From contig MJAN01000007.1 in NCBI GenBank assembly GCA_001875255.1, positions 1 to 64,000 of the forward strand: DNA of 64,000 nt, in the 5' to 3' direction. The notes beneath the pieces are model-generated. The model did not search any database. It was not told the DNA's origin and was given only the letters and a program-made list of their open reading frames with translations. Within the stretch, counting starts at the first letter, position 1. Each line of letters begins with the position of its first letter. Below are positions 13,944-29,635 of the stretch, piece by piece. This stretch comes from Candidatus Sabulitectum silens. GTDB lineage: Bacteria; Fermentibacterota; Fermentibacteria; Fermentibacterales; JCC-6. Position numbers and translations under genes: made by a program.

Positions 13944-14730
13944 CATCAGGGCTGCCGCTCTTTATAGCAGGCCCATGCGGCATTGAATCGGAAGCCATGG
14001 TCATGGAAACCGCAGGCTTCGTCAGAGGTCTTGCCAACCATTTCCGGGGCAGGGCTGAGTTCGTTTTCAAAAGCTCCTTCCTGAAGGACAACCGAACCTC
14101 CGCCGGTTCCTGGGCGGGTCCTGGTATGAAGGAGGGGTTGAGGGTACTGGGGAAGGTCCGTGAAGAGTTCGACCTTGCCCTTCTCACCGACATACACACC
14201 GCCGATCAGGCACTTCCCGTTTCCCGAGTCTGTCAGATCTTGCAGATACCCGCCTTCCTTTGCCGCCAGACATCCCTTCTTGCAGCCGCCGGCGCCACCG
14301 GTCTGCCGGTGAATGTGAAGAAGGGCAGTTCATGTCTCCGGAGAACATGAAGGGGGCTGTTGATAAACTCAGGGAATCCGGCTGCCCCCATGTCCTCCTC
14401 ACCGAGAGGGGAAGCTTTTTCGGTTATGGTGACCTGGTGGTGGACATGCGCTCCCTTACGGTGATGGATGGCATTTCCGACGGGGTAGTCATGGACATTA
14501 CCCATTCGCTGCAGAAACCAGGTGCCGACGGCGGGATCTCCGGCGGCGATCGCTCCTTCGCAGTTCAGATGGCTCGGGCCTCCGCCGCCTGGGGGATTTC
14601 CGGCATCTTCCTGGAAGTACACCCGGATCCATCCCGGGCCCTTAGTGACAGGGCTGTTATGCTGAGTTTTTCAAAGGCTGAAGAGCTGATTGAAGCGGCC
14701 CTCAACTGCTGGCGGGGGGTGAGTGAGTGA
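13925..14730 (+). CDS. kdsA: 3-deoxy-8-phosphooctulonate synthase, frameshifted
   Basis: Condenses arabinose 5-phosphate with phosphoenolpyruvate to Kdo 8-phosphate. Joined length ~268 residues matches the family. Recognised by IAGPCGIES, FKSSFLKDNR, LTDIHTADQ, IPAFLCRQT, VNVKKG, LTERGSFFGYGDLVVDMR, VMDITHS and FLEVHPDP. ATG 13925 has GAGGAGG at seven bases. One frame change sits near 14325 (KKG then GQFMSPENM), one base lost. The stop codon overlaps the GTG start of kdsC. The presence of a Cys or Asn in the metal position cannot be judged with certainty across the shift, but the PCGIES segment has the usual layout. Confidence 0.9.
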
Positions 14731-15203
14731 ACCTCAAGGATATCAGGCTGGTTGCCCTTGATGTTGACGGGACCCTTACCGACGGAAGGCTGCTTTACGG
14801 GCCTGAAGGCGTTTCCCAGGCCTTCAGCGCCAAGGACGGACAGGGGATCATGAAGCTGCTTCAGGCAGGGGTTCAGGTTGCCTTCGTATCCTTCAGGGAT
14901 CTTCCCTCCACGCGAATGCGAGCCTCCGATCTGGGTGTTTCGCTGCTCTGCCTGGGCAGTTCCGATAAGGCTCTTTCCCTTAAAAACCTTGCGGATCACC
15001 TCGATATTCCCTCCTCTTCCATCCTTTTCATGGGAGATGACGAAAAGGACATTCCGGCAATGAAGACCGCCGGTGTTTCAGCGTGCCCGGCTGATGCATC
15101 CCCCTCTGTGAAGGAGATATGTCACATGACCGCCAGGGCCGACGGGGGCACCGGAGCGGTGAGGGAGATAGCTGAAGCTGTACTGGAGGCCCTTGATGAA
15201 TGA
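14727..15203 (+). CDS. kdsC: 3-deoxy-8-phosphooctulonate 8-phosphatase
   Basis: Intact 158-residue HAD phosphatase that hydrolyses Kdo 8-phosphate to Kdo. DVDGTLTDG supplies the nucleophile/acid Asp pair (residues ~12 and 14), FSAKDGQGI is the KdsC signature, and FMGDDEKDIPAM holds the motif-4 acidic residues. One deviation: the usual motif-2 region (SGR) reads VSFRDLPSTR here. GTG start overlaps the kdsA stop; its own stop overlaps kdsD, giving tight coupling. Confidence 0.9.
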   Translation: MNLKDIRLVALDVDGTLTDGRLLYGPEGVSQAFSAKDGQGIMKLLQAGVQVAFVSFRDLPSTRMRASDLGVSLLCLGSSDKALSLKNLADHLDIPSSSILFMGDDEKDIPAMKTAGVSACPADASPSVKEICHMTARADGGTGAVREIAEAVLEALDE

Positions 15204-16152
15204 TCTTCTGACCGAGGCAAAACGGGTCTTTCAGATCGAGATAGAGTGGCTTGAGGAAACGCTGTCGATGAATTCCGAGAGCTTTCCCCGGGCGGTGGAA
15301 CTCCTCCGGGGCACCATGGGCAAAATAGTTGTCTGCGGCATCGGCAAGTCGGGGCTGGTGGGCAGAAAGATCGCCGCTACCATGACCAGTACCGGAACAC
15401 CTGCCTATTTCCTTCATCCCTCCGAGGGCATCCACGGCGATGTGGGTATGCTTTCCAGGGGAGATTCCTCCCTTGTGCTCTCCAAAAGCGGAGACACCGG
15501 CGAGATCTCCGCCCTGCTTCCCATCCTCAGGAAACTGCGCATACCGGTGGTGGCCATTGTTTCCAGCAGGAATTCCCTTCTTGGCCGATTCGCCGATGTG
15601 GTACTTGAGCTTCCCAACCGCCGGGAAGCCTGCCCCTTCGACCTGGCCCCCACCGCCAGCACAACGGCAATGATGGCCCTGGGAGATGCCCTTTCCATGG
15701 CTATGCTCAAGCTATCCGGGTTTACCCCGGAGGATTTCGCCGAGGTCCACCCCGGTGGTGTTCTCGGCAGAAAACTCCTGATGCGTGTATCCGATCTCAT
15801 GGAATGTGCCAGTCTGCCCCTTCTTCCACTGGATACCCCTGTCACCGATGCCCTTCAGGAAATGACCGCCCACCGGGGGATATGTCTTGCGGTTGACCAG
15901 CGGAACAGACTCATGGGGGTTTTCGTCTATGGCGATCTCGGCAGGCTCATGAAGACAGCCCCTGACCTCCGGGGTCTCAGCCTTTCAGAGGTGATGACCG
16001 GGAATCCCGCGGTATGCTCTCCGGATGACCTTGTGGCCCTTGCTGTACAGAGGATGGAGGAGATGGGGATAACTTCCATAGTCGCAGTGGATGACAAGGG
16101 GATCCCCATGGGCATACTCTACCTTCATGACGCACTGACCCTGGGTTTCTGA
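15196..16152 (+). CDS. kdsD: Arabinose-5-phosphate isomerase (SIS + two CBS domains)
   Basis: Intact 318-residue protein of normal length. It interconverts ribulose 5-phosphate and arabinose 5-phosphate, the Kdo precursor. An SIS domain occupies about residues 30-165 (VCGIGKSGLVGRK, TGTPAYFLHPSEG, LSKSGDTGE, PTASTTAMMALGDALS), followed by EVHPGGVLGR and a pair of CBS domains to the C-terminus (…DLMECASLPLL…, VMTGNPAVCSPDDLVALAVQRM). ATG 15196 follows GGAGG by seven bases and overlaps the kdsC stop. A hairpin region follows before lptC. Confidence 0.93.
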   Translation: MNDLLTEAKRVFQIEIEWLEETLSMNSESFPRAVELLRGTMGKIVVCGIGKSGLVGRKIAATMTSTGTPAYFLHPSEGIHGDVGMLSRGDSSLVLSKSGDTGEISALLPILRKLRIPVVAIVSSRNSLLGRFADVVLELPNRREACPFDLAPTASTTAMMALGDALSMAMLKLSGFTPEDFAEVHPGGVLGRKLLMRVSDLMECASLPLLPLDTPVTDALQEMTAHRGICLAVDQRNRLMGVFVYGDLGRLMKTAPDLRGLSLSEVMTGNPAVCSPDDLVALAVQRMEEMGITSIVAVDDKGIPMGILYLHDALTLGF

Positions 16153-16174
16153 GGGTTCCATTTTCCGGCGGTCT

Positions 16175-16216
16175 ATAGCCGGATCGGTGAAAAATCGGTA
16201 TCTTTTCACCGGCTAT
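16175..16216 (+). repeat. Compound inverted repeat between kdsD and lptC
   Basis: Inner arms GGTGAAAA (16186-16193) and TTTTCACC (16203-16210) with outer arms ATAGCC (16175-16180) and GGCTAT (16211-16216); a 5-base bulge (GGATC) sits on the left side only. No T-run follows, so it is not a typical terminator; an attenuator, RNA-stability hairpin or operator is possible. Confidence 0.6.
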
Positions 16217-16254
16217 GATCCATATGTGAACAGCCTGAAATGGAGAAATCACCG

Positions 16255-16823
16255 TTGAAATCAGGATATCCCGGTAACCCTTCCATGCTATGCCTCTCTT
16301 TGATCCTCATGGTTGTTTTTGCCTGCGGGAATCCCCCGGAGGAATGGTCCGAGGAGAGCGGAAGGGTACAGACAGTGTCGGAGGTAAGGCTGGTGCAGTC
16401 CGAAGAGGGCATCAGGGACTGGATGCTCACCGGGGATTCTGCGGTATACCGCGAAGAAGACAGCCTTCTCACAATTATCGATGTGAACATAGTCTTCTAT
16501 GAGAATGATATTCCCGAAAGCTTTCTGAGAAGCGATACCGGTTCCTCCGATCTCGTGGACGGCCGGACGGTCCTCTGGGGAAATGTCTTCGCGGAGAATA
16601 CAGAGGGAAGGACCCTTACCACCGATCTCCTCAACTGGTCCGATTCTATGGGAACCTTCCAGACCGACTGTCTTGTCACCTTCATGATACCTGAATCCAC
16701 AGGGACCACCACCTGCAGGGCAGGGGAGTGGTTTTTGATACAGGTCTGTCCGCCGTGGGGGATATTACCGTGCAGGAATCCTTCACCGCGGTGACCACCG
16801 GTGAGGTTCCCCTTGACCGGTAA
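16255..16823 (+). CDS. lptC: LPS export periplasmic/lipoprotein LptC, frameshifted
   Basis: About 189 residues, normal for LptC. A short N-terminus, one hydrophobic segment and MVVFAC give a possible lipobox; a single beta-jellyroll repeat pattern follows (VRLVQSEEG…WMLTGDSAVYREED…VNIVFYEND). LptC passes LPS from the LptBFG extractor to LptA. The frame changes near 16735 and the protein then ends at 16823, overlapping lptA. The favoured start is TTG 16255 with GGAGAA seven bases upstream; ATG 16240 lies over that SD. Assignment rests on the fold pattern and position between kdsD and lptA/lptB. Confidence 0.7.
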
Positions 16824-17869
16824 AGCCCTCCCCCTCCTTCTGATGCTCTTTGCCGCGGCTGGGTCCGGCGGCGGGGTGTTCACCGTAACATCTGACCACG
16901 CATCCACCTCGGAGACCGAGGGAGGAGAAACACTACTCACCCTCAGGGGCAATGTGGTGGTAACCGACGATCAGGTTACGGTAACATCCGATTCCGCAAG
17001 GGTATTCCAGACATCAGAACGGGCCGAGTTCTTCTCCGGGGTCCATGTGGAAGCGGACACCCTGAACGCCGATGGTGCCTATCTGACCTATTCCCGTATT
17101 ACCGGTGTCATGGTCCTGGCTGGAGGCGCCCGGCTTTCCGACGGCTCCTCCACCCTCACCGCGGACAGGGTTGACTGGTTCAGGTTCAGGGACATGGCCA
17201 CCGCAAGGGAGGAGTGCTCCTCACCGGCGACTGGCTGGGTGAGGTCAGTGGTGAATACGCATTGTATGACAGGAAGCGGGGAAGCCTTTTCGTTACCGTC
17301 GAACCGGTTCTGACAAGGGTGGAGGATTCCGACACCACGGTTATAACCGCGGATCGTCTCGAGTTCTTTGAGGAGGGCGAGAGGGCAGAGGCCCAGGGGA
17401 ATGCCTTCGTAACCATGCCCGGCAGGGACATGGAAACCGAGAGCGAGTATCTCAGGTACTTCGGAGAGGAACAGAGGATGGAGCTCATCGGTTCACCGGA
17501 GATCAGGTCCGGGGAGGGTCTCCTTCGGGGCGACTGGATGGAGGGGCTGCTGAATGATAATGGTGCCATTGAGTTCCTTCGAATCGAGGGGGCCGCCTCG
17601 GGGAATTTCAGCGAAGAGGTCACCACGGTTGACTTTCATTCACAGAGGCTGAATTTACCTTCCTGGCCGGGGGGGAGGAACTCGACAGCCTCCTTCTGCA
17701 GGGAAGCGCCGTTCTCAATGTTTTCGGTGAGGATTCACTGCGGGTGGAGGCAAACACCATATCCGCCGAGGAAATCGTTATAGATTTCTTTGACGGAGAA
17801 GCAGAAACGGTGATGGCCCGGGGGACCGTAAGGGGCACATACAGCTGGAGCGGGGAGTTTCGTGACTGA
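16801..17869 (+). CDS. lptA: LptA/OstA-like periplasmic LPS transport protein, frameshifted
   Basis: About 355 residues, roughly twice a classical LptA, so it contains several OstA-like jellyroll repeats. Signal peptide PLLLMLFAAAG is followed by repeated T-L-x-G-N-V-V-V / TSDSARVFQTSERAEF / DTLNADGAYLTYSR patterns, the usual LptA strand sequence, and again by ITADRLEFFEEGERAEAQGNA. Frame changes lie near 17200 and 17655. It would bridge the periplasm to the outer-membrane LptD. GTG 16801 overlaps the lptC end; stop overlaps lptB. Confidence 0.75.
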
Positions 17870-18602
17870 CACAGACCGAGCGGACATTCTCAGGGCCGAG
17901 GGCCTTGTAAAGAAATACAGGAAGAGGAAGGTGGTGGACGGCGTGAGCCTCGAGGTAAAGAGGGGCGAGATCGTCGGACTTCTGGGGCCGAACGGTGCGG
18001 GGAAGACCACAACCTTCTATCAGATCGTCGGCTTCATCAAACCAGACGGCGGAAGTGTGTTCCTGGATCAGAGGGAGATAACCGGGCTTCCCATGTACAA
18101 AAGGGCAAGGCTCGGTCTTGGATACCTTCCCCAGGAATCCAGCGTCTTCAGGAAAATGACCGTGGCGGACAACCTCATGTGCATTCTGGAAACCACCTCA
18201 TTGCCAAAGAAAGAACGCCGTGCCAGGCAGAAAAGGCTCATGGATGAACTGGGGATCACCCGCCTTGCGGATCAGAAGGCATACACGCTCTCCGGAGGCG
18301 AGAGAAGAAGGGTAGAGATAGCCAGGGCCCTGGTTACAGATCCTGGATTCCTTCTTCTAGATGAACCCTTCGCCGGAATCGATCCCATAGCCGTGGCTGA
18401 CATTCAGGAGATCATAAGGAAACTGGCGGAAAAGGGACTGGGTGTACTTATAACCGACCACAGCGTCAGGGAAACCCTAGCGATTACCGACAGGGCCTAC
18501 ATCATGTACGACGGCAGGGTACTGATATCCGGCTCCGCCCAGGAACTCGCCAACGATCCGGAAGCAAGAAAGATCTATCTCGGAGAAAGGTTCACACTCT
18601 GA
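17862..18602 (+). CDS. lptB: LPS export ABC transporter ATP-binding protein
   Basis: Intact 246-residue ABC ATPase powering LPS extraction with LptF/LptG (not in this window). Walker A GPNGAGKTT, Q-loop region PQESSVFRKMTV (a typical LptB stretch), signature LSGGERRR, Walker B FLLLDEPFAGIDP and the switch histidine in ITDHSVRETL are all present. GTG 17862 has GGGGAG four bases upstream and overlaps the lptA stop. Only two bases separate it from rpoN. Confidence 0.95.
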   Translation: MTDTDRADILRAEGLVKKYRKRKVVDGVSLEVKRGEIVGLLGPNGAGKTTTFYQIVGFIKPDGGSVFLDQREITGLPMYKRARLGLGYLPQESSVFRKMTVADNLMCILETTSLPKKERRARQKRLMDELGITRLADQKAYTLSGGERRRVEIARALVTDPGFLLLDEPFAGIDPIAVADIQEIIRKLAEKGLGVLITDHSVRETLAITDRAYIMYDGRVLISGSAQELANDPEARKIYLGERFTL

Positions 18603-18604
18603 CA

Positions 18605-20007
18605 ATGCCGGAACTGAGAACCCAGCTCAAGCTGACCCAGACGCAGAAGCTCGCCATGACCCAGACCCTCAGGCAGCAGCTGGAGATCCTTCAGATGCCC
18701 TCCACGGAACTAGAAGGCCTCATCGAAACGGAGCTGGCGGAAACCCCTTCTGGAAGAGGAGGGCAGTTCAGCCGACGGCACCGAAGGTGAAGAGGACAGC
18801 GAAAAGGACGAAGAACCGGAAAGGGAGGACCCGGGCGAAGATGATCCCTGGACATATTGAAGGAGATAGACGAGCAGATAGGAACTATGCCCGCAAGCAG
18901 GTATCGTGAGGAGGAACCCTGGCACCCCGAAGCGGTGAGAACCCCCACCCTGAGCGAACATCTTCTGGCACAGCTGGACACCATGGAGCTGTCCTCCAAC
19001 GAGGAAAGCGCAGCGGTATATGTGATCTATTCCCTTGACCGTCATGGCCTTCTGGGTCTGGATCCGGAAGAACTTCAGATCGGATGGGGAGGCCCTGTGA
19101 GCATACTGCGAAGGGGAGTAAATATCGTTCAGAGGATGGACCCGCCGGGGGTCGCCCAGTTCTCCGCCAGGGATGCCCTCCTTTTTCAGCTGAAGCGGAG
19201 GGATGGCGAAAACGCCGCTGAATCCCTTGAGTACAGGATCATTCTCAGGTGCTTCCATGAACTGGCTGAAAGGAAGATAACCGGTATCTCCGGGGAACTC
19301 GGGGTTACCCCGCACCAGGTGGAGGAGGCCATCGAGAGGATCAAGCTTCTCAATCCCTGGCCCGGGGCGGAGTTCGCCGGAAGTTCCAATACCACGGTAA
19401 TACCGGACATCATCATAGAGAAACACGACGGCAAGTTCCTTGTGTTCCTGAACGATGACCGCTTTCCCCATCTTGCCATAAGCAGCCGCAACCGGCGGAT
19501 ACTGGAGTCTCCCTCCACAGGAGCAGTGGAAAAGAACTATGTGAAGAAGAAGTTCAAAAAGGCCAGCTGGTTCATAAGGGCGATTAGGCAGAGACAGGAA
19601 ACGGTGACAAGGATAGCGGAGTTCATCACAAGGAAGCAGGAGGGTTTTCTAAGGAACGGGGTGGATTCCCTGGTTCCCCTTACCCTCCAGGAGGCCGCCG
19701 AGGCACTGGGCTACAACCAGTCAACCATCAGCAGGGCCATCAACGGCAAGTATGTGCAGTCCCCCAGGGGATACATGAAATGAGGTACTATTTCAGCAGG
19801 GGAAGCGCCGACACTTCGGTGGCGGCGGCCACGGTACGGGAAGAGATAAAGAGGATAATTGCCGCGGAGGACAGCAGCAAACCGCTCAGTGACGAGAAGA
19901 TCGCGGAAATGCTCAACGCCGCCGGCACACAGATAAAAAGACGGACGGTCGCTAACTACAGAAAACAGATGGATATACCGGGCGCCAGGAAGAGAAGGCG
20001 CTTCTAA
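18605..20007 (+). CDS. rpoN: RNA polymerase sigma-54 factor, frameshifted
   Basis: About 467 residues joined, the normal size. The Gln/Leu-rich activator-binding region (LTQTQKLAMTQTLRQQLEIL) opens the protein, an acidic linker (EEDSEKDEEPE) follows, then the core-binding domain (RMDPPGVAQFSARD), the HTH (LTLQEAAEALGYNQSTISRAINGKYV) and the RpoN box KRRTVANYR near the end. Three frame changes lie near 18750, 18855 and 19775; the last splits the RpoN box domain from the rest, and restoring one base gives the expected G-Y-M-K-x-R-Y-Y-F-S. The position after lptB is the widely conserved one. No clear -24/-12 promoter was found in the window. Confidence 0.92.
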
Positions 20008-20018
20008 GGGGATTCAGG

Positions 20019-21404
20019 ATGAGCAACGATATCTTCAAGGGCTACAGGGGCGTAACGAGGGAAATGATGGAGAAGCTGGGAGTAAAGGTGTGGGACGATG
20101 TGATCCTCACAGCCGGACCCAATGTATTCCAGGGGGTGGTCCTTCCCAGAAGCGAAACCGCCGACGCCGATCACATCGTTCTCAAACTGGCCACAGGCTA
20201 TAACATCGGTGTATCGGCCACAAAGGTCACTTCTGTGGAGATACTGGGCTCCAGGGAAGCCCACTACCAGATCCCCGAGCAGGCCTTTCCCTATGACGAG
20301 AAGAATCCCAGGGTCAAGCTGCTGGGAACCGGAGGCACCATCGCCAGCCGTCTCGACTACAAGACCGGTGCGGTGATCCCCGCCTTCTCCCCGGGCGAGC
20401 TCTACGGGGCAGTACCAGAACTTGCGGATATCTGCAACCTTGAGACCGAGAAGCTTTTCGGAATATTCAGCGAGGACATGGGCCCAGAGCAGTACATCAC
20501 ACTTGCGAAGGCCATCGGCGAAGAGATAGAGAAGGGCGTAGACGGCATAATGATAGGACACGGGACCGACACCCTGAGCCACACCGCCGCCGCCCTCACA
20601 TACATGTGCCAGGACCTCCCGGTTCCGGTGGTTCTGGTGGGCAGCCAGCGCTCCAGCGACCGGCCCTCCAGCGACGCCGCCCTGAATCTCATACACGCCG
20701 CCCGTACCGCGGCCTATTTCGACGCCGCGGAGGTAGTCGTGTGCATGTTCGGTCCCACCAGCGACCAGTACGGCCTCCTTCACCGGGGTCCCCAGGTCAG
20801 GAAGATGCACTCCAGCTACAGAAGCACCTTCAGGACCATCGGCGACAGACCCCTTGCCATGGTGGACAGAGAGAAGTTCACCTTCCTGAAACAGAACTAC
20901 CTGAAGCGCGACCTGAACCGAAAGCCAAACATCAGACCGGTCTTTGACCACAGGGTGGGCATGGTCTACTACTATCCCAACATGAAACCGGACATGATCG
21001 ACTCCATGGTGGACAACGGATACAAGGGCATAGTAATCGCCGGAACCGGCCTCGGCCATGTGAACAAACCCCTGTATGAACCCATAAGAAGGGCAACCGA
21101 AGCGGGTGTTCATGTCTTCATGACCGTACAGACCCTCTGGGGATACGCCCAGATGTACGTTTACGACACCGGCAGGCTCCTCATGCAGCGGGGCGTGGTC
21201 CCCCTGGCCAACATGCTCCCCGAGGCCGCCTACATAAAACTGGGCTGGGCTATGGGTGTAACCGACGACCACGAGGAGGTCAAGCGCCTCATGCTTACCC
21301 CGGTGGGCGGCGACATCACCGACAGCGAACCCCCCGACGGATACATCATCCTTCAGGGAGGTGTGCCCGAGGTGGAGCATATTTTCGAAGGCATAAACCG
21401 CTAA
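20019..21404 (+). CDS. gatD: GatD-type asparaginase-fold amidotransferase subunit
   Basis: Intact 461-residue protein. After a ~75-residue N-terminal barrel-like domain come the L-asparaginase motifs: LLGTGGTIASRLDY (first catalytic Thr), DGIMIGHGTDTLSHTAAAL (second Thr-Asp pair), LVGSQRSSDRPSSD, and VPLANMLPEAAYIKLGW near the end. Length and the N-terminal extension fit archaeal GatD, which with GatE converts Glu-tRNA(Gln) to Gln-tRNA(Gln); ordinary bacterial asparaginases are ~330 residues. No gatE neighbour is present, so it may pair with a distant gatE or act as a free asparaginase/glutaminase. ATG 20019 has AAGGGG upstream. Its stop codon runs into a 29-bp inverted repeat. Confidence 0.85.
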   Translation: MSNDIFKGYRGVTREMMEKLGVKVWDDVILTAGPNVFQGVVLPRSETADADHIVLKLATGYNIGVSATKVTSVEILGSREAHYQIPEQAFPYDEKNPRVKLLGTGGTIASRLDYKTGAVIPAFSPGELYGAVPELADICNLETEKLFGIFSEDMGPEQYITLAKAIGEEIEKGVDGIMIGHGTDTLSHTAAALTYMCQDLPVPVVLVGSQRSSDRPSSDAALNLIHAARTAAYFDAAEVVVCMFGPTSDQYGLLHRGPQVRKMHSSYRSTFRTIGDRPLAMVDREKFTFLKQNYLKRDLNRKPNIRPVFDHRVGMVYYYPNMKPDMIDSMVDNGYKGIVIAGTGLGHVNKPLYEPIRRATEAGVHVFMTVQTLWGYAQMYVYDTGRLLMQRGVVPLANMLPEAAYIKLGWAMGVTDDHEEVKRLMLTPVGGDITDSEPPDGYIILQGGVPEVEHIFEGINR

Positions 21405-21431
21405 AGCCATCCGTAAATTTGACAAATAGAT
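21403..21431 (+). repeat. Left arm of a perfect 29-bp inverted repeat
   Basis: Bases 21403-21431 are the exact reverse complement of 22502-22530. The left arm starts in the gatD stop codon. In the right arm the same bases encode the last codons (KAIRKFDK, stop) of the reductase gene. The arms flank the kinase and MaoC genes (1.07 kb between them). Confidence 0.95.
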
Positions 21432-21479
21432 TGCCTAAATACAAGCGGGACAACAGATAAAGCATGAGGGGAGAAACGG

Positions 21480-21968
21480 ATGAAAATTGATATCGAAGCG
21501 GTACAGCTGAGCTTTCCCGAGGGATGCAACATCATTCTCGGTCAGTCACACTTCATTAAGACCGTTGAGGACCTGTATGAGTCGGTGGCCGGAGTCATCC
21601 CCGGGAGTCCCTTCGGGATCGCTTTCAGCGAGGCTTCCGGCCCGAAGCTGGTGCGAAGCGATGGAAACGATCTGGAACTGAAGAGGATCGCCGAGGAGAA
21701 CATCCTTGCCATCTCAGCAGGGCACTGCTTCATGATAGTTCTTGGTGAGGCCTTTCCCATTCAGGTCCTCAATGCCATAAAAACGGTTCCCGAGGTGTGT
21801 TCCATCTTCTGCGCCACGGCCAATCCGGTTCAGGTGATAGTCGGGAGAACGGAACAGGGCGGAGGGATCCTGGGGGTTATCGACGGAGAGTCACCCACTG
21901 CGGTGGAGTGCGAAGAGGATGTTTCAGCCAGGCTGGAGCTTCTCAAGAGATTCGGGTACAAGCGCTGA
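21480..21968 (+). CDS. Adenosine-specific kinase family protein
   Basis: Intact 162-residue protein matching the adenosine-specific kinase family (formerly DUF355), common in archaea and deep-branching bacteria and ~160 residues long. Marks of the family: QLSFPEGCNIILGQSHFIKTVEDL at the start (only its beginning varies), PGSPFGIAFSEASGPKLVR, GHCFMIVLG, and NPVQVIVGRTEQGGGILGV at the active-site end. Few members have been tested biochemically, so adenosine phosphorylation is a family-level statement. GGGGAGAAACGG precedes ATG 21480. It shares strand with gatD and MaoC and lies within the inverted-repeat segment. Confidence 0.8.
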   Translation: MKIDIEAVQLSFPEGCNIILGQSHFIKTVEDLYESVAGVIPGSPFGIAFSEASGPKLVRSDGNDLELKRIAEENILAISAGHCFMIVLGEAFPIQVLNAIKTVPEVCSIFCATANPVQVIVGRTEQGGGILGVIDGESPTAVECEEDVSARLELLKRFGYKR

Positions 21969-21996
21969 CCGTTTGATCAGCTGGAAGGGGGTATTC

Positions 21997-22463
21997 ATGG
22001 AAGAAAGAAAGATAGTCGCCTCCCACATGGACCTGGAGGCGTTCCTGGGGCAGGAGGTCGGTCGTTCCGGCTGGCGGTTGATACCCCAGGAAATGATCAC
22101 CGCCTTTGCCGATGCTACCAGCGACCACCAGTGGATACACACCGATCCCGCCAGGGCCGCCAGGGAAACCGACTTCGGAACCACCATAGCCCATGGCTTC
22201 CTCACCGTTTCCCTCCTTCCAGCGCTTCTCGATGAGATCATCGAGGTGAGGAACTCGAAGATGACCGTTAACTACGCCGTTGAGAACCTGAGATTCGGCG
22301 CTCCGGTAAAGGTAAACAGCGAGGTGAGACTGATCCTCACTCTGGAGGAGATAAGGGACCTGAGGGGAATTACCAGGGTCGCTTCGGAGTTACAATGGAG
22401 ATAAAGGGAGAACCGAAGCCTGCCTACAAAGGCAAGGTAATACTGCTTTATCACTTCGAGTAG
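21997..22463 (+). CDS. MaoC-type (R)-hydratase, frameshifted near the end
   Basis: A ~155-residue hot-dog-fold hydratase. The MaoC motif is clear: FADATSDHQWIHTDP (Asp/His catalytic pair) then FGTTIAHGFLTVSLLP. It would hydrate enoyl-CoA to (R)-3-hydroxyacyl-CoA. ATG 21997 has GGAAGGGGG upstream. The frame changes near 22390, after which the ending reads GKVILLYHFE, stop 22461-22463. Being inside the inverted-repeat segment next to the ceramide genes, it could feed acyl-CoA metabolism, but that link is conjecture. Confidence 0.85.
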
Positions 22464-22481
22464 TGTCAGGTTTAATTATAT

Positions 22482-22512
22482 GTAAGACAATAGATTACGA
22501 GATCTATTTGTC
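22482..22512. repeat. Imperfect palindrome at the right boundary of the inverted segment
   Basis: GACAATAGAT (22486-22495), 6-base loop, ATCTATTTGTC (22502-22512); the left arm lacks one A. The stretch 22482-22496 also resembles a shortened direct copy of 21414-21433. It could act as the terminator shared by the convergent MaoC and reductase genes. Confidence 0.5.
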
Positions 22513-22530
22513 AAATTTACGGATGGCTTT
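22502..22530 (-). repeat. Right arm of the perfect 29-bp inverted repeat
   Basis: Reverse complement of 21403-21431 with no mismatch. It forms the 3-prime end of the reductase coding sequence, so this arm is under coding constraint while the left arm is not. Confidence 0.95.
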
Positions 22531-23434
22531 GCCTATCTCCCGGAGGATGTCCTCGGGGCTCATCCTGGGTTTCCACCCGGTGAGTTCCTCCACCTCGTGC
22601 TGAAGCAGTACCCAGGATGGAGCGGTGAGCTCCCTGGCCTTGTCCCTTGTTACCATGGGGCAAGAGCCGGTGAAGGTGGAGAGCACCTCCGAGAAGAAGC
22701 CCGCTGTATGAACCATGAAGGAAGGCACCCGTAGTCGGAGTATCTTTCTCTGAAAGGCTTCTTCCAGGGCGCTATGGAACCTCTTCCATGTGATCAGCTC
22801 AGGCCAGGAGGGCTGGAGGGTCTTCCCGGCAGCCCCGGGGGAGGTCATCACCAGGGTCATGAAAACCGCCAGGTCGGAGACCCCTATCATCGGAAAACCA
22901 CCAGGCTCTCCGCCGGTGGAAACTGTGATGCCCCTGGAAGCCCACTTGAACAGATCCTCAGTGGCTGAATCACCGGGGCCGAACACAGCCGGCGGGCGGA
23001 CCACGATGAACCTGTCCATTCCTGTTACCGCTTGTTCCGCAAGCACTTTGCTCCTACCGTAGGCGGTGACGGGCCCGGTGCCGCAGGGGCCGCATGCAGC
23101 CTGGCTGGAGGTGAGTACAAAAGGGCCTCAGGGCATACTTGCCTGGCTGCCTTCACCATCGCAGCCGTGGAACCGGCGTTGATCCTGTCGAATTCTTCCC
23201 GGCTCCCGGCCTTTACCGCCCCGGCAACGTGCTGGATCACATCGATGCCTTCCAGATGATCGGCCACGCTCTGCCAGTTCTCTATGTCCACCACCCTGAC
23301 ATCGCAGCCCTCAGGTATCAGGGACCTGTCCGAGGTGGGCGGACGGCGGCGATGACGCTGTGCCCCGAATCAAGCAGAGCCCCGGCGAGATTCCTGCCGA
23401 CGAAGCCCGATACTCCTGTTAGAAAAACTTTCAT
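22504..23434 (-). CDS. NAD(P)-dependent epimerase/dehydratase, candidate ceramide/ketosphinganine reductase (CerR-like), frameshifted
   Basis: An extended SDR of ~310 residues. The N-terminus reads MKVFLTGVSGFVGRNLAGALL (nucleotide-binding TGxxGxxG), a middle segment has D-V-I-Q-H-V-A-G, and YGRSK provides the catalytic Tyr-xxx-Lys, followed by VVRPPAVFGPGD. Frame junctions lie near 23335 and 23115. Start is ATG 23434; the 112-base gap to the divergent SPT-like gene must hold both promoters. In Caulobacter, an SDR of this class (CerR) reduces the keto group in ceramide synthesis; the position here beside SPT and YghO/bCerS homologs supports the same role. A sugar epimerase is the alternative, but no sugar genes adjoin it. 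Confidence 0.7.
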
Positions 23435-23546
23435 GAACCTTCCCTTCGAAGGAGGGAATATGCTGCATCAGCTTTGTTTTCGGAAGCGGTGATATTAGAT
23501 TCATAGGTCAATTTTCATTTTTTTAAACATAAGCGGCGGGGTTCCA

Positions 23547-24730
23547 ATGGACATATTTCAGAAGTGTTTCGATTACGACAGGGCCGACAAGGTCAAGGCA
23601 ATGGGTCTCTATCCCTATTTCGTTCCTCTCCAGGGTCATGTGGGCGCCGAGATGGAGATCGGTGGTCACGGCCTGATCATGCTGGGTTCCAACAATTACC
23701 TGGGCCTTACCGACAATCCCTACGTTATGGAGAAGGCAAGGGAAGCGGTACTGAAGTACGGAACAGGATGCACCGGCAGCCGTTCCTGAACGGAACGCTG
23801 GACCTGCACATAGAGCTCGAAGAAAGGCTTGCTGATTTTCTGAACAAGGAAGCCTGCCTCACATACAGTACCGGTTTCCAGGCAAACCTGGGCACAATAG
23901 GCACCCTTGCCGGCAGGGAAGACATCATATACCTCGACAGGAAGAACCACGCCTCGATCATCGACGGAGCGCGGATGGGGTACGCCAGGGTGGTGAAGTA
24001 CCGCCACAACGATCTGGTTCAGCTCAGGCACATACTTGAGAAGAACGCCGGGCAGCCGGGGATGATCATAACCGACGGTGTATTCAGCATGGAGGGCGAC
24101 CTCGCGGATATCTGCGGCCTGGCAGACCTGGCGGAGGAGTTCAAGGTCCGTCTGCTGGTAGACGATGCACATGGAGTGGGCGCCATGGGAAAAACTGGAA
24201 TGGGCACCGCGGAACACCAGGGTTGTCATGACAGGGTGGACCTCATGGTGGGCACATTCAGCAAGTCATTCGCCTGTATCGGCGGTTTCGCCGCAGGCCC
24301 CGGAGATGTGATCAGTTATCTCCAGCATAACGCCAGAACCAATATCTTCAGCGCAAGTCTTCCCCCGGCCGCCGTTGCCACTGTAATTGCAGCTCTGGAC
24401 ATCCTTCAGGAGCAGCCGGAACTATTGGAAAAGGTTCACCATGCAGCCGAAAGGTGCAGGAACGGCCTTGCGGCAATGGGGTTCAATGTGGGAAGGAGCG
24501 CTGCTCCCATCGTACCCATCATCATAGGCGACGACCTGGACTGCTTCAGGTTCTGGAAGGACATGTTCGACAACGGCGTGTTTACGAATCCCGTTGTTTC
24601 CCCTGCGGTTGAACCGGGGGGAGCAATGCTCAGAACAAGCTACATGGCAAGCCACACCGACAACATGATCGACAGGGCCCTGGCTGTCTTCGAAAAAGTC
24701 GGACGCAGACACAACCTCATTGGTTCCTAG
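23547..24730 (+). CDS. spt: Serine palmitoyltransferase-like alpha-oxoamine synthase, frameshifted
   Basis: PLP enzyme of ~394 residues condensing an amino acid with acyl-CoA. Motifs: LGSNNYLGLTDNP, TGFQANLGTIGTL, DRKNHASIIDG, VDDAHGVGAMG, and the lysine motif GTFSKSFACIGGF. The TFSKSFA form is typical of bacterial serine palmitoyltransferase; glycine C-acetyltransferase and BioF usually show TLGKA. One frame change occurs near 23783 (GSRS to FLNGT). ATG 23547 has GGCGGGG upstream. The next gene begins one base after the stop. With the SDR and GNAT neighbours this is best read as the entry step of ceramide synthesis; BioF is less likely since no biotin genes adjoin. Confidence 0.8.
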
Positions 24731-24731
24731 C

Positions 24732-25853
24732 ATGGGTATCGCCATCGAAAGGGTTGAAACACGGAAGCAGAGAAAAGAGTTCATCATGCTTCCCTTCCGG
24801 ATCAACGCCGGTGATCCCCACTGGGTACCACCGCTTCTCATGAATGTCAGGGCCCTGATGAAGAAAACCCATCCATTCCATGAACACGCCGACGTCGAGT
24901 TCTTCATGGCAAGGGGAGAGGACGGCAGGGTTACCGGAAGGATAAGCGCAGCGGTGAACCATGCCCATAACGAGTATCACAACGAGAAGACAGGTTTCTT
25001 CGGTTTTCTCGAGTGCGAGAACGACGAGAGGCTGGCTGCCCTCCTTCTTGAAACCGCTGAGAAATGGGTAAAGGAACGGGGAATGGACAGGATCCGGGGC
25101 CCCTTCAACCTCTCCACCAACGAGGAATGCGGACTTCTTGTTGACGGTTTCAACACCGACCCCAGGCTCATGATGCCCCACAATCCCCCATGGCTGGGCG
25201 GTCTTGTTGAGAACGCGGGCTACGGGAAGGCCGTTGACCTCCTTGCCTACTGGGCGGATGGAGATGAGAACGACTTCGAGAAGCTCTTCAGGGTGGCGGA
25301 TATGGTGAAACGCCGCGGGAACTGGACCGTCCGGGGAATAAACATGAAGGACCTGAAGAACGAAATGCGGAAGGTCATGGATGTTTACAATGAATGCTGG
25401 GGGGAGAACTGGGGCTTCGTCCCCATGACCTCCAGGGAGTTCTCCGCCATGGTTGACGAGCTGAAAATGCTCATTACACCGGAACTCACCCCCCTTGTTG
25501 AACTGGACGGTGAGCTCGTAGCCTTCGGAGTAGCCCTTCCAGACGCTAATATTGCCTTCAAGAAGGGCAGGGGAAGGGCACTGCCCTCGGTTCTGGCACT
25601 GAAGGTCCCACCCTTCAGGGTAAAGATCGACAGGGTCAGGGTCCTCCTCATGGGCGTTAAGAAAAAGTACAGGAACAGAGGGCTGGAAGCCCTTGTGATA
25701 GAGAACATCGTGAACAACAGCAGAAAGCTGGGAATGGGCCGCGGGGAGCTCTCCTGGATACTGGAGGGCAACCGGGAGATGAGGGCCATACTCGAAAAAC
25801 AGATGAAGGCTGAACCGTACAAGCGGTACAGGATCTATGAGAAGGAATTCTAA
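24732..25853 (+). CDS. YghO/bCerS-like GNAT-fold acyltransferase, candidate bacterial ceramide synthase
   Basis: Intact 373-residue protein. The pattern LPFRINAGDPHWVPPLLMNVRAL, HPFHEHADVEFFMA, GRISAAVNHAHNEYHNEKTGFFGF, IRGPFNLSTNEECGLLVDGF and MMPHNPPW is that of YghO-family proteins, whose Caulobacter member (bCerS) N-acylates the long-chain base to make ceramide. A GNAT domain with K-K-Y-R-N-R-G-L-E lies at residues ~310-325. It is cytoplasmic, directly downstream of the SPT-like gene and probably co-transcribed. Homologs also occur outside sphingolipid makers, so the pathway call depends on the neighbourhood. Confidence 0.75.
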   Translation: MGIAIERVETRKQRKEFIMLPFRINAGDPHWVPPLLMNVRALMKKTHPFHEHADVEFFMARGEDGRVTGRISAAVNHAHNEYHNEKTGFFGFLECENDERLAALLLETAEKWVKERGMDRIRGPFNLSTNEECGLLVDGFNTDPRLMMPHNPPWLGGLVENAGYGKAVDLLAYWADGDENDFEKLFRVADMVKRRGNWTVRGINMKDLKNEMRKVMDVYNECWGENWGFVPMTSREFSAMVDELKMLITPELTPLVELDGELVAFGVALPDANIAFKKGRGRALPSVLALKVPPFRVKIDRVRVLLMGVKKKYRNRGLEALVIENIVNNSRKLGMGRGELSWILEGNREMRAILEKQMKAEPYKRYRIYEKEF

Positions 25854-27627
25854 ATGACCGAAAGAGAACTAGTCGAACTCTACACGAAATTTTTCCAGGG
25901 GAAGGATCACCGGCTTATTCCCGGGGCCTCGATCATCCCCGAGAACGATTCCACAATTCTCTTCACCCCGGCGGGAATGCAGCCCCTGGTGCCATACCTG
26001 CTGGGTGAGAAACACCCATCGGGAAAAAGGCTGGTGAACGTTCAGAAGTGCATAAGGACCGGTGACATCGACGAAGTGGGCGACGACACCCACCTGACAT
26101 TCTTCAGGATGTTGGGGAACTGGTCCCTGGGCGACTACTTCAAGCGGGAGGCTATCCTCTGGAGCTGGGAATTCCTCACCGGGAAGGACTGGCTCGGTTT
26201 CGACCCGGGTAGGATCAGCGTGACGGTCTTCGCCGGCCAGGGTGACATTCCACCTGATGAGGAAGCCGCCGCCATCTGGCGGGAAGCCGGGGTTCCCCAG
26301 GAAAGGATCCACCGCTTCGGCATGAAGGACAACTGGTGGGGGCCCACCGGCGCCACTGGTCCCTGCGGCCCGGACACCGAGATGTTCTATGACACAGGAA
26401 AGGAACCCTGCGGAGTGGACTGCCGGCCGGGCTGTTCATGCGGCAGGTTTTTCGAGGTATGGAACGATGTTTTCATGGAGTACAGGAAAACTCCCGGCGG
26501 GGAGTACCAGCCCCTGACCCAGAAGAACGTGGACACGGGAATGGGGGTTGAGCGCACCGTGGCCATGATCGCTGGATGCGACACCGTTTACGACATCGGC
26601 GTTCTGAAGACCCTCACAAAAAGATACGGGAAATGGCGGGAACCGATGGTTCCTCACCCCGATCCGAAAGGGTGATTGCCGACCACATCCGTGCGGCGAC
26701 ACACATGATAGGCGACGACCTCGGTGTTGTTCCATCCAATGTGGATCAGGGCTACGTGGTGCGCAGGCTCATACGCATTGCCGTCCGGCACTGCCTGAAA
26801 CTGGGGCTGGAGAAAGATGTTCTGCCGGAGTTCGCCGCCATAGTGGTCGAGGAGGAGGGCCGTGAGTACGGCGAACTGATCCGTAACAGCGGCAGGATAT
26901 ACGAAGAGCTCACCAGGGAGATCGATCTCTTCGGCCAGACCCTCGAGGCGGGTATGAAGCAGTTCGGCAAGATGCTGCCCAACCTTCTGAAGAACCCCAG
27001 GAAAACCGTTGCGGGAAGACTTGCATTCAAGCTGTACGACACCTACGGGTTCCCTGTGGAACTCACCGCCGACCTTGCAGCTGAACACGGCATGACCGTT
27101 GATATGGAGGGCTATGAAGCCGCCTTCGAAAAACACAGGGAGCTTTCCAGACAGGGTGCCGACCAGAAATTCAAGGGCGGCCTGGCGGACAACAGCGAGC
27201 AGGTAACGAAGTACCACACCGCCACCCACCTTCTCCACGCCGCCCTGAGAAAGGTCCTGGGAGATCATGTGCAGCAGATGGGTAGCAACATAACCGCCGA
27301 AAGGCTGCGGTTCGACTTCCGCCACCCGGAAAAGATGACCGACGAAGAGATAGCCGAGGTGGAGAGGCTGGTTAATGAAGCCATCGAGAAGGGCATTCCC
27401 GTGAATGTATGCGAAATGAGCCCCGGTGAGGCGGAAAGGACCGGTGCCCTGGGCTTCTTCAAGGACAGATACGGTGATGTAGTTAAGGTTTACACCATAG
27501 AGGGCTATTCAAGGGAGATATGCGGAGGTCCCCATGTGGAGAAGACCTCCGACCTGGGCAGGTTCAGGATAGCATCGGAAAAGAGTTCTTCCCGGGGCGT
27601 CAGACGGATCAGGGGGTGCTTGAATGA
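25854..27627 (+). CDS. alaS: Alanyl-tRNA synthetase, short form without C-Ala domain, frameshifted
   Basis: Joined length is ~591 residues, against ~870 for most bacteria. The catalytic core is complete (FTPAGMQPLVPYLLGE, HLTFFRMLGNWSLGDYFK, GPCGPDTEMFYDTG, NVDTGMGVERTV) and the editing domain is present (HTATHLLH zinc site, REICGGPHV). The protein stops after FRIASEKSSSRGVRRIRG, so the DHHA1/C-Ala region is absent, as in spirochaete AlaS. Frame changes sit near 26618 and 27614; restoring the second gives R-G-V-L-E then TGA at 27625-27627. ATG 25854 follows the previous stop directly. The stop overlaps the next gene in an ATGA. Confidence 0.9.
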
Positions 27628-28509
27628 TCCCCCTTCTTTTCCTCCTTGCCGCCTGGGACTATTCAGGGTCTGGCAGACCACATACGGCAGCATGATACTG
27701 GAACAGCAGGGAAGGGCGGTTTCCGGCTGGTACAGCTACGGAGGAATGTCCACCATCGAGGGCACGGTTAACGACTCCGGCAGAATGGTCTTCCGGTACG
27801 ACGAGGGCAACGCAGCGGGAGAGGGCTGGTTCCAGATGTCCGAGGCCGGCAACTCCTTTTCAGGCCAGTGGAGGGCCGACGGCGCAGGGAGCTGGAGCTC
27901 CTGGGAGGGATATCGCTCAGCGGAGGACGGCTCCAGATGGCTGGTTATCCTCGAGGCCGAATGGCAGGAGTCCCTCACCGAGAACGAATACTCCTTCGGA
28001 GAGATGCTTCAGGCCTGGCTGGGCAGGCTGGAGGGGTGAACATACGCCACCGGTTCGTCCACGACGCCGAAGATGTGAGGAATGTCTGCTCCGAGGCCGC
28101 CATGCTTCCCGGAGATGTCTATCTTGTCTTCGCCAGCCACGGTACCGAGGCGGGGATATCCCTGGACAGGGGAACCATTTCCCCGGCGGAACTGGCCGGG
28201 GCCGCCGCCCTGATCCCCAACCTCAGACTTGTTCATTTCAGCTGCTGCCTCATAATGGCCGGGGGCGCCGACGAGGCAATAATCAGAGCAAGGAACGACT
28301 GGGATGAAGACTTCGCCGTCTCGGGCTACACCACCTCGGTTGACTGGGGCGGAAGCGCCATCATCGAGTTTTATTACCTGAATCAGATCCTCGAGAACGG
28401 CATGACGCCCCTGGAGGCCTCCAGGGCACTGCTGTCGGACATAAGGTTCGCCGGGGCCAGGGGAACGGTGCACATGGACGGCGCGGGATTTGAGATAAGA
28501 ACACCCTGA
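27624..28509 (+). CDS. Secreted protein: lipocalin-like domain plus caspase-like His/Cys domain, frameshifted
   Basis: About 295 residues. A short signal-like start (MIPLLFLLAAW) precedes a Gly/Trp-rich beta domain (GVWQTTYGSMILEQQGRAVSG, SFSGQWRADG) of the kind found in many small secreted bacterial modules. The second half has VYLVFASHGTEAG and, ~35 residues on, LRLVHFSCC: a hydrophobic strand ending in His-Gly and another ending in Ser-Cys-Cys, the clan CD (caspase/gingipain-like) dyad layout. Frame changes lie near 27668 and 28036, both repaired by one G. ATG overlaps the alaS stop. Peptidase activity is inferred from the dyad only; I do not know a named family with this architecture. Confidence 0.55.
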
Positions 28510-28527
28510 ACACCAGGAAAGGGCAGT

Positions 28528-29635
28528 ATGGAACTACTAAGGAAACTTTGTGAAACCCATGGCATCTCCGGCAGGGAAGACGCAGTTGTGGAACTTCTGA
28601 AAGAAGAGCTGAAGGATCACGCCGACGAGATAAGAACCGATGCCATGAAGAACATCATAGCCATCAGGAGGGGGACCCGGGGGGAGAACAGACCCGGGTG
28701 ATGCTGGCCGGGCACATCGACGAGATCGGTTTCCTCATCTACAATATCGACGACAAGGGATTCGCCTCGATCTCACCGGTGGGGGGCTGGAGTCCCGGTT
28801 CAATAGCGGGCCACACCGTGAAGGTCCACACAAGGAAGGGCGAAGTACTCACCGGAGTGGTCTCGGCGCATCCTGCCCTAACCCCTGAAGCGGCGAAAAA
28901 GGCTCCGGACATGGAAAAGCTTTTCATAGACTTCGGCATGCCCGGTGACACGGTGAAGGAAAAGGTGGAGAGGGGAGACTGGGTCTCCATGGACAGCACC
29001 TTCCAGGAGCTGGGTGAATGCTTCGTTGCAAAGGCATTCGACGACAGGGTGGGAGCCTACATCATTGCCGAAGCCTTCAAGAAGTACGATAACCCGGAGA
29101 TAGATGTTTTCTGCGTGGCACCGCCCAGGAGGAAGTAGGTCTCAGGGGCGCAACGGTTGCCGCCCTCTCGGTCAGGCCGGATATCGGGATCGCCGCGGAC
29201 ATCACCGGCGCAGGGGACACCCCGGGGTTCCCGGCGACCCACAGGATAGCCGAACTGGGCAAGGGAGTGGCCATCAAGCAGCAGGACGCAAGCGTGATAT
29301 GCTCCACCGCTCTTGTGGAGTTCATCAGGAACCTGGCGGAGGAAAAGGACATCCACCACCAGATGGAGATACTTGTAAGGGGAGGGACCGATACCAGCGC
29401 AATGCAGAAATTCGGCGGCGATACCCACGCCACCTGCCTCTCCATTCCCACCAGGAACGGCCACAGCCCGGTTGCCATCATCCACCGCCACGACGTGGAG
29501 ACCGCGGTGGAACTCCTGGTGGAATTCCTGAACACCGCCCACACCTTCCAGGCTGAACCATCGAATGGCGGGGCCCCCGGCGGCCCCGCCCCCGGTTACG
29601 CACACTATAAGGGTCATGGAGCTGAGCATTCCTGA
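28528..29635 (+). CDS. M42 family metallo-aminopeptidase, frameshifted
   Basis: A glutamyl/leucyl aminopeptidase-type enzyme of the FrvX/PepA-like M42 family, ~345-365 residues. Motifs: LCETHGISGREDAV at the N-terminus, LAGHIDEIGF (metal His/Asp), GGWSPG, KAFDDRVGAYI (bridging Asp), AQEEVGLRGATV (Glu pair), DITGAGDTPGF and RGGTDTSAMQ. Frame changes lie near 28688 and 29125. These form large cytoplasmic rings that trim peptides. ATG 28528 follows AGGAAAGGG. The open frame runs on through a GC-rich hairpin to 29635; the true stop may be the TGA near 29554 if another base is missing. Confidence 0.88.
29567..29590 (+). terminator. GC-rich hairpin at the end of the M42 gene (possible terminator)
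   Basis: Nine-bp arms GGCGGGGCC (29567-29575) and GGCCCCGCC (29582-29590) with a 6-base loop. No T-run follows. It overlaps the last apparent codons of the peptidase and precedes an AT-rich promoter region. Confidence 0.45.

What the first reader, a model, noticed from the sequence alone, without database searches (positions are those of the whole stretch)
22504..25853. Three-gene bacterial ceramide (sphingolipid) synthesis set
An extended SDR, an SPT-like enzyme with the TFSKSFA lysine motif and a YghO/bCerS-like GNAT protein lie side by side. In Caulobacter the SPT, CerR and bCerS proteins are the known minimum for bacterial ceramide. Finding all three together here, with an LPS operon next door, suggests a sphingolipid-containing outer membrane in a lineage where this has hardly been studied.
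Basis: partly seen in the sequence, partly recalled or inferred. Interest (0 to 1): 0.6.

Follow-up and report, generated by a model that had tools for sequence, protein, structure and literature searches.

The report
Ceramide synthesis genes in Fermentibacterota
These are the three known core genes for making bacterial ceramide, conserved side by side across an uncultured bacterial phylum (Fermentibacterota) that also makes lipopolysaccharide; they are new members of an already described pathway, not a new system.

Summary
A divergent extended SDR (CerR-like), a serine palmitoyltransferase (SPT) and a bCerS/YghO-type GNAT protein lie together at 22504-25853. In this assembly CerR is split by two frameshifts and SPT by one, as are neighbouring genes (rpoN, alaS, a peptidase); congeners carry intact copies, so sequencing error is the likely cause. 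The genome is a Fermentibacterota MAG close to Candidatus Sabulitectum. The trio lies on one contig in 33 of 41 genomes of the same order, and homologous trios occur in Gemmatimonadetes, Planctomycetes and Bacteriovorax. The stated refutation fails: SPT groups with solved and annotated SPTs (support 100/99), apart from KBL and BioF, keeps the catalytic residues, and has alanine where the cysteate enzyme SulA has lysine. bCerS is 36% identical to E. coli YghO over its length. CerR is supported mainly by gene linkage and SDR motifs. The Rhodobacterial acyl-ACP synthetase AasR was not found, which fits the Bacteroidetes/delta-type SPT subgroup. LpxC and lptB/kdsC/kdsD indicate lipopolysaccharide as well. 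A 2024 Black Sea survey already extended this gene set to about 40 phyla, so this is a new member of a known kind. No lipid data exist.

The parts
22507..23434 (-). CerR-like extended SDR (3-oxo-ceramide / 3-oxo-sphinganine reductase candidate), broken by two frameshifts near 23337 and 23120; pieces 23318-23434, about 23118-23336 and 22507-23120
   Evidence: Frames and breaks; intact orthologues of 303-312 aa in congeners; Rossmann TGxSGFVG and S..YGRSK motifs; monophyletic with the CerRs of the phylum, 100/99
23547..24727 (+). Serine palmitoyltransferase, one frameshift near 23783; PLP lysine 240 (codon 24263), His135, Asp206, His209, Arg363, Ala270 (codon 24353)
   Evidence: 47% identity over 382 aa to Sphingobacterium multivorum SPT 3a2b; SPT clade 100/99; best NCBIfam model of the intact orthologue is SPT-CFB, 488 bits
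24732..25850 (+). bCerS/YghO-type GNAT N-acyltransferase (bacterial ceramide synthase candidate), intact
   Evidence: 36% identity to E. coli K-12 YghO over 366 aa, E 2e-80; Acetyltransf_1 match; 42% to the Bacteriovorax protein next to its SPT
25854..27625 (+). alaS (alanyl-tRNA synthetase, frameshifted), directly downstream of bCerS in nearly all relatives; conserved neighbour, not part of the pathway
14727..18602 (+). kdsC, kdsD, lptC, lptA-like and lptB: LPS assembly genes 4 kb upstream; context only
   Evidence: NCBIfam: LptB 371 bits over cut-off, LptC 43.5 over cut-off, KpsF/KdsD 277 over cut-off, KdsC subfamily 110 over cut-off

Best explanation
This is a bacterial ceramide-backbone cluster. 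SPT condenses L-serine with a long-chain acyl thioester, probably acyl-ACP from fatty-acid synthesis, to 3-oxo-sphinganine. bCerS then adds the second, amide-linked acyl chain. CerR reduces the 3-oxo group to give dihydroceramide, which probably goes to the outer membrane alongside LPS. Shown here: gene identities, conserved active-site residues of SPT, synteny over the order and across phyla, and LPS genes in the same genome. Inferred: substrates, the order of the last two steps (taken from Caulobacter work), the acyl donor, and the location of the lipid.
For: SPT tree: SPTs with solved structures or RefSeq naming plus all cluster members form one clade (100/99), with E. coli KBL, the organism's own KBL, BioF and the Thermus enzyme outside. 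PDB: 3a2b at 9e-122 and 410 bits, against 287 for the next non-SPT. The SulA-diagnostic lysine (PMC9304779) is alanine here. The same genome has a separate true KBL scoring over its own cut-off. bCerS matches YghO over its full length, and in E. coli STEC1590 yghO lies next to spt, acp, an epimerase and a fatty acyl-AMP ligase. Trio linkage: 33 of 41 genomes of the order, plus trios in other phyla in different gene orders.
Against: No lipid has been measured. NCBIfam equivalog cut-offs for SPT are not reached by the orthologues (488 against 640), so it is a divergent member. CerR has no diagnostic family model, and its grouping with CerRs of other phyla is unresolved: p-AU 0.40, one clade in 51% of bootstraps. 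No Caulobacter protein could be put in the trees. In the assembly as given, two of the three genes are frameshifted.
Confidence: 0.87

Rival explanations
1. The SPT-like enzyme is a cysteate acyltransferase (SulA/CFAT) and the cluster makes sulfonolipids (capnine type).
For: SulA has the SPT fold and most of the same active site (PMC9304779); 28eh and 7u7h are matched at 253 and 230 bits.
Against: The residue that PMC9304779 gives as distinguishing, Lys281 of SulA (30 residues after the PLP lysine), is alanine here and in SPT 3a2b at the same spacing; the SPT 3a2b match is far stronger (410 bits).
Confidence: 0.03
2. The SPT-like enzyme prefers alanine or glycine (or another amino acid) and makes 1-deoxyceramides or related lipids with the same bCerS and CerR.
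For: 1-deoxysphingolipids were found in the euxinic Black Sea, and the authors note that Spt can use alanine and hypothesise further amino acids (PMC11334938); sequence does not fix serine preference.
Against: No positive evidence in this locus; catalytic residues are those of serine-using SPTs.
Confidence: 0.07
3. The SPT-like enzyme is a KBL- or BioF-type enzyme next to unrelated genes.
For: Same alpha-oxoamine synthase superfamily; KBL and BioF models also match.
Against: Excluded from the KBL/BioF side of the tree at 100/99; a separate KBL exists in the genome; linkage to bCerS and CerR over the order and in other phyla.
Confidence: 0.01
4. The cluster is decaying in this strain: the frameshifts are real and the pathway is dead here.
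For: One frameshift in SPT and two in CerR.
Against: rpoN (1), alaS (1), the ORF after alaS (1) and a peptidase (2) in the same 12 kb are also split, which is not credible biology for alaS; the split SPT frames keep about 79-90% protein identity to congeners.
Confidence: 0.03

Closest known systems
Bacteroidetes/deltaproteobacterial-type bacterial ceramide genes (Sphingobacterium SPT 3a2b; Bacteriovorax cluster L053)
   Same: SPT of the same clade (47% identity to 3a2b); Bacteriovorax has spt-bCerS-CerR in tandem
   Different: Here CerR is divergent from spt-bCerS and alaS follows; Fermentibacterota members form their own clade (100/99)
Caulobacter/Rhodobacterial five-gene ceramide set (spt, acpR, aasR, cerR, bcerS), represented here by the E. 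coli yghO-spt region
   Same: SPT, SDR and YghO/bCerS components
   Different: No AasR homologue found in the order and no acp in the cluster; SPT lies outside the E. coli/Sphingomonas branch
SulA cysteate acyltransferase of Bacteroidetes
   Same: Fold and PLP site
   Different: Alanine in place of diagnostic Lys281
KBL (glycine C-acetyltransferase)
   Same: Superfamily
   Different: Separate branch; the genome has its own KBL

Membership tests
Bacterial serine palmitoyltransferase | Groups with known SPTs apart from KBL, BioF and other alpha-oxoamine synthases | tested here: met
   Clade of 16 with 3a2b, 2x8u and E. coli Spt, 100/99
Bacterial serine palmitoyltransferase | Catalytic residues (PLP Lys, stacking His, Asp/His of the PLP site, Asn and Arg for the substrate carboxylate) | tested here: met
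   K240, H135, D206, H209, N50, R363 (roles from PMC9304779)
Bacterial serine palmitoyltransferase | Alanine, not lysine, at SulA position 281 | tested here: met
   Ala270, 30 residues after the PLP lysine as in 3a2b
Bacterial serine palmitoyltransferase | NCBIfam SPT equivalog cut-off (a curation threshold, not a biochemical feature) | tested here: inconclusive
   Best model is SPT-CFB but 488-505 bits against cut-off 640; the Bacteriovorax enzyme, from a genus with a known SPT, also falls short at 507. The models are tight, so this marks divergence rather than exclusion
Bacterial serine palmitoyltransferase | Serine plus long-chain acyl thioester activity | not testable with these tools
   Needs enzyme assay
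bCerS/YghO N-acyltransferase | Full-length homology to YghO/bCerS and linkage to spt | tested here: met
   36% over 366 aa to YghO; adjacent to spt in at least 33 genomes
bCerS/YghO N-acyltransferase | Acyl transfer to the long-chain base | not testable with these tools
   Needs enzyme assay or lipidomics
CerR ceramide reductase | Extended SDR with Rossmann and YxxxK motifs, NDUFA9-like | tested here: met
   TGxSGFVG, YGRSK; profile matches NDUFA9/39-kDa complex I subunits among other SDRs (NDUFA9 likeness of CerR from PMC11087976)
CerR ceramide reductase | One clade with CerRs of other phyla | tested here: inconclusive
   Not rejected (p-AU 0.40) but in only 51% of bootstraps
CerR ceramide reductase | Conserved linkage to spt and bcerS | tested here: met
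   and, in other phyla
Rhodobacterial five-gene set | AasR acyl-ACP synthetase | tested here: not met
   Nothing at E 1e-30 in 60 relatives; 0 of 45 over the NF006624 cut-off, with 2 of 14 controls over it
Rhodobacterial five-gene set | Specialised acyl carrier protein AcpR | not tested
   No acp gene within the cluster; the rest of the genome was not searched for one
SulA (sulfonolipid) | Lys at position 281 | tested here: not met
   Alanine

The most novel reading that the evidence does not exclude
Fermentibacterota carry a phylum-wide, vertically kept ceramide pathway whose SPT uses an amino acid other than serine, so that they are a source of the 1-deoxysphingolipids of anoxic waters and have a mixed LPS/ceramide outer membrane.
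Probability: 0.07. Interest if true: 0.5.

Novelty: new member of a known kind. Interest (0 to 1): 0.27.

Why it matters
It makes an uncultured phylum a testable source of sphingolipids in anoxic environments, and adds a lineage where LPS genes and ceramide genes coexist. The pathway itself is known, and its spread over many phyla was already reported.

Tried and rejected
KBL/BioF reading of the SPT: rejected by the tree. Sulfonolipid reading: rejected on the diagnostic residue. Real gene decay: judged unlikely because rpoN, alaS and a peptidase nearby are split too. AasR partner: not found; the E. coli genome could not be used as positive control because it is not held. First CerR tree used one Planctomycete sequence in the wrong frame; rebuilt. 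Papers joining Fermentibacter and sphingolipid: none; Sabulitectum: none. Supplementary tables of PMC11334938, which may list Fermentibacterota among the 38 phyla, could not be read. Promoter/terminator scan of the cluster gave nothing above chance.

Full report
Where it comes from. The window lies in a 2.9-Mb, 94-contig assembly, 71% complete. Its bCerS protein is 76-80% identical to proteins of MAGs named Candidatus Sabulitectum and Candidatus Fermentibacteraceae and about 50-60% identical to other Candidatus Fermentibacteria. The genome is therefore a Fermentibacterota member of, or close to, Sabulitectum.

Observation. bCerS is intact at 24732-25850. SPT begins at 23547 and is split once near 23783; the SDR runs on the minus strand from about 23434 to 22507 and is split twice. 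Comparison with congener contigs shows the same kind of break in rpoN, alaS, the ORF after alaS and a peptidase, all within 12 kb. Base-calling or assembly indels are the simplest cause. Congener genes read through in single frames.

Conservation. In the 41 relatives of the same order, I counted from the coordinates the trio on one contig in 33 genomes, the genes on separate contigs in 3 (G018, G024, G037), and the trio missing or partial in 5 (G005, G014, G030, G035, G041), all of them incomplete MAGs (61-88% complete). The order is CerR (divergent), SPT, bCerS, alaS. Trios with other arrangements occur in Gemmatimonadetes, Planctomycetes, Bacteriovorax and an unclassified bacterium: linkage has survived rearrangement, which argues for shared function.

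SPT. Against solved structures the intact congener enzyme scores 410 bits with Sphingobacterium SPT, then 287 for a KBL/BioF-like enzyme and 253 for cysteate acyltransferase. Bit scores alone do not settle activity, because alphaproteobacterial SPTs score only about 260. The tree does more: SPTs with solved structures, E. coli Spt and all cluster members form a clade at 100/99, with KBL and BioF outside. E. coli Spt and Sphingomonas SPT form a separate branch at 100/100, matching the Rhodobacterial subgroup of PMC9386255. PMC9304779 names Lys281 of SulA, alanine in SPT, as the distinguishing residue; the window enzyme has alanine at the same distance from the PLP lysine. The NCBIfam SPT models are the best matches but stay under their cut-offs, as does the Bacteriovorax enzyme.

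bCerS. The protein is 36% identical to E. coli K-12 YghO over 366 residues. In K-12 an IS5 element lies next to yghO; in E. coli STEC1590 the region holds lptF, lptG, spt, acp, an epimerase, a fatty acyl-AMP ligase and yghO, a useful independent example of the same set.

CerR. The window protein joins the Fermentibacterota CerRs at 100/99, separate from the other epimerases of its genome. Grouping with CerRs of other phyla is neither shown nor rejected (p-AU 0.40). SDR motifs are in place, and the family profile matches complex I NDUFA9-type SDRs among others, the likeness reported for Caulobacter CerR (PMC11087976). Its identity among congeners (49-58% to the window protein) is much lower than that of SPT (79-85%), so it evolves faster.

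Mechanism. SPT makes 3-oxo-sphinganine, bCerS acylates it and CerR reduces it, in the order argued for Caulobacter in PMC11087976; the opposite order of the last two steps remains possible. No AasR-type acyl-ACP synthetase passes its cut-off in 45 genomes, and none matches at E 1e-30 in 60. Acyl-ACP from fatty-acid synthesis is the likely donor (inference).

Context. kdsC, kdsD, lptC, an lptA-like gene and lptB lie 4 kb upstream, and LpxC is in the same contig at 102620 and in nearly all relatives. Ceramide would therefore sit beside LPS, not replace it as in sphingomonads (inference; the sphingomonad case is stated in PMC11087976).

Novelty. PMC11334938 extended Spt-like proteins, with CerR and bCerS linked in many cases, from 9 to about 40 phyla. 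Its main text does not name Fermentibacterota; whether its tables do is unknown. The finding is a well-supported new member of a known kind.

Noticed in passing
Relatives, e.g. G016:C3:230813-231874 (L087), G013:C6 (L088), G021:C95 (L089): Many other Fermentibacterota carry a second bCerS/YghO-like GNAT (29-34% identity). In G016 it sits between an Na+/H+ antiporter gene and kdsA/kdsB-like genes, with a lipid A acyltransferase and a kdsD-like gene nearby; in G013 and G021 the neighbours differ. It was not found in the window's genus.
   Followed up: partly
window 18857-29551: rpoN, SPT, CerR, alaS, the ORF after alaS and a peptidase are all frameshifted relative to congeners: the assembly is rich in indels and gene calls from it need care.
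   Followed up: yes
window 20019-21401: GatD-type Glu-tRNA(Gln) amidotransferase subunit (484 bits, over cut-off), a subunit usually thought of as archaeal, in a bacterium; 89% identical in a congener.
   Followed up: no
window 21480-21965: Adenosine-specific kinase (PF04008) gene between gatD and the ceramide genes.
   Followed up: no
window 27668-28506: Frameshifted ORF after alaS, conserved in congeners, with HG and SCC stretches that look caspase-like by eye; not searched.
   Followed up: no
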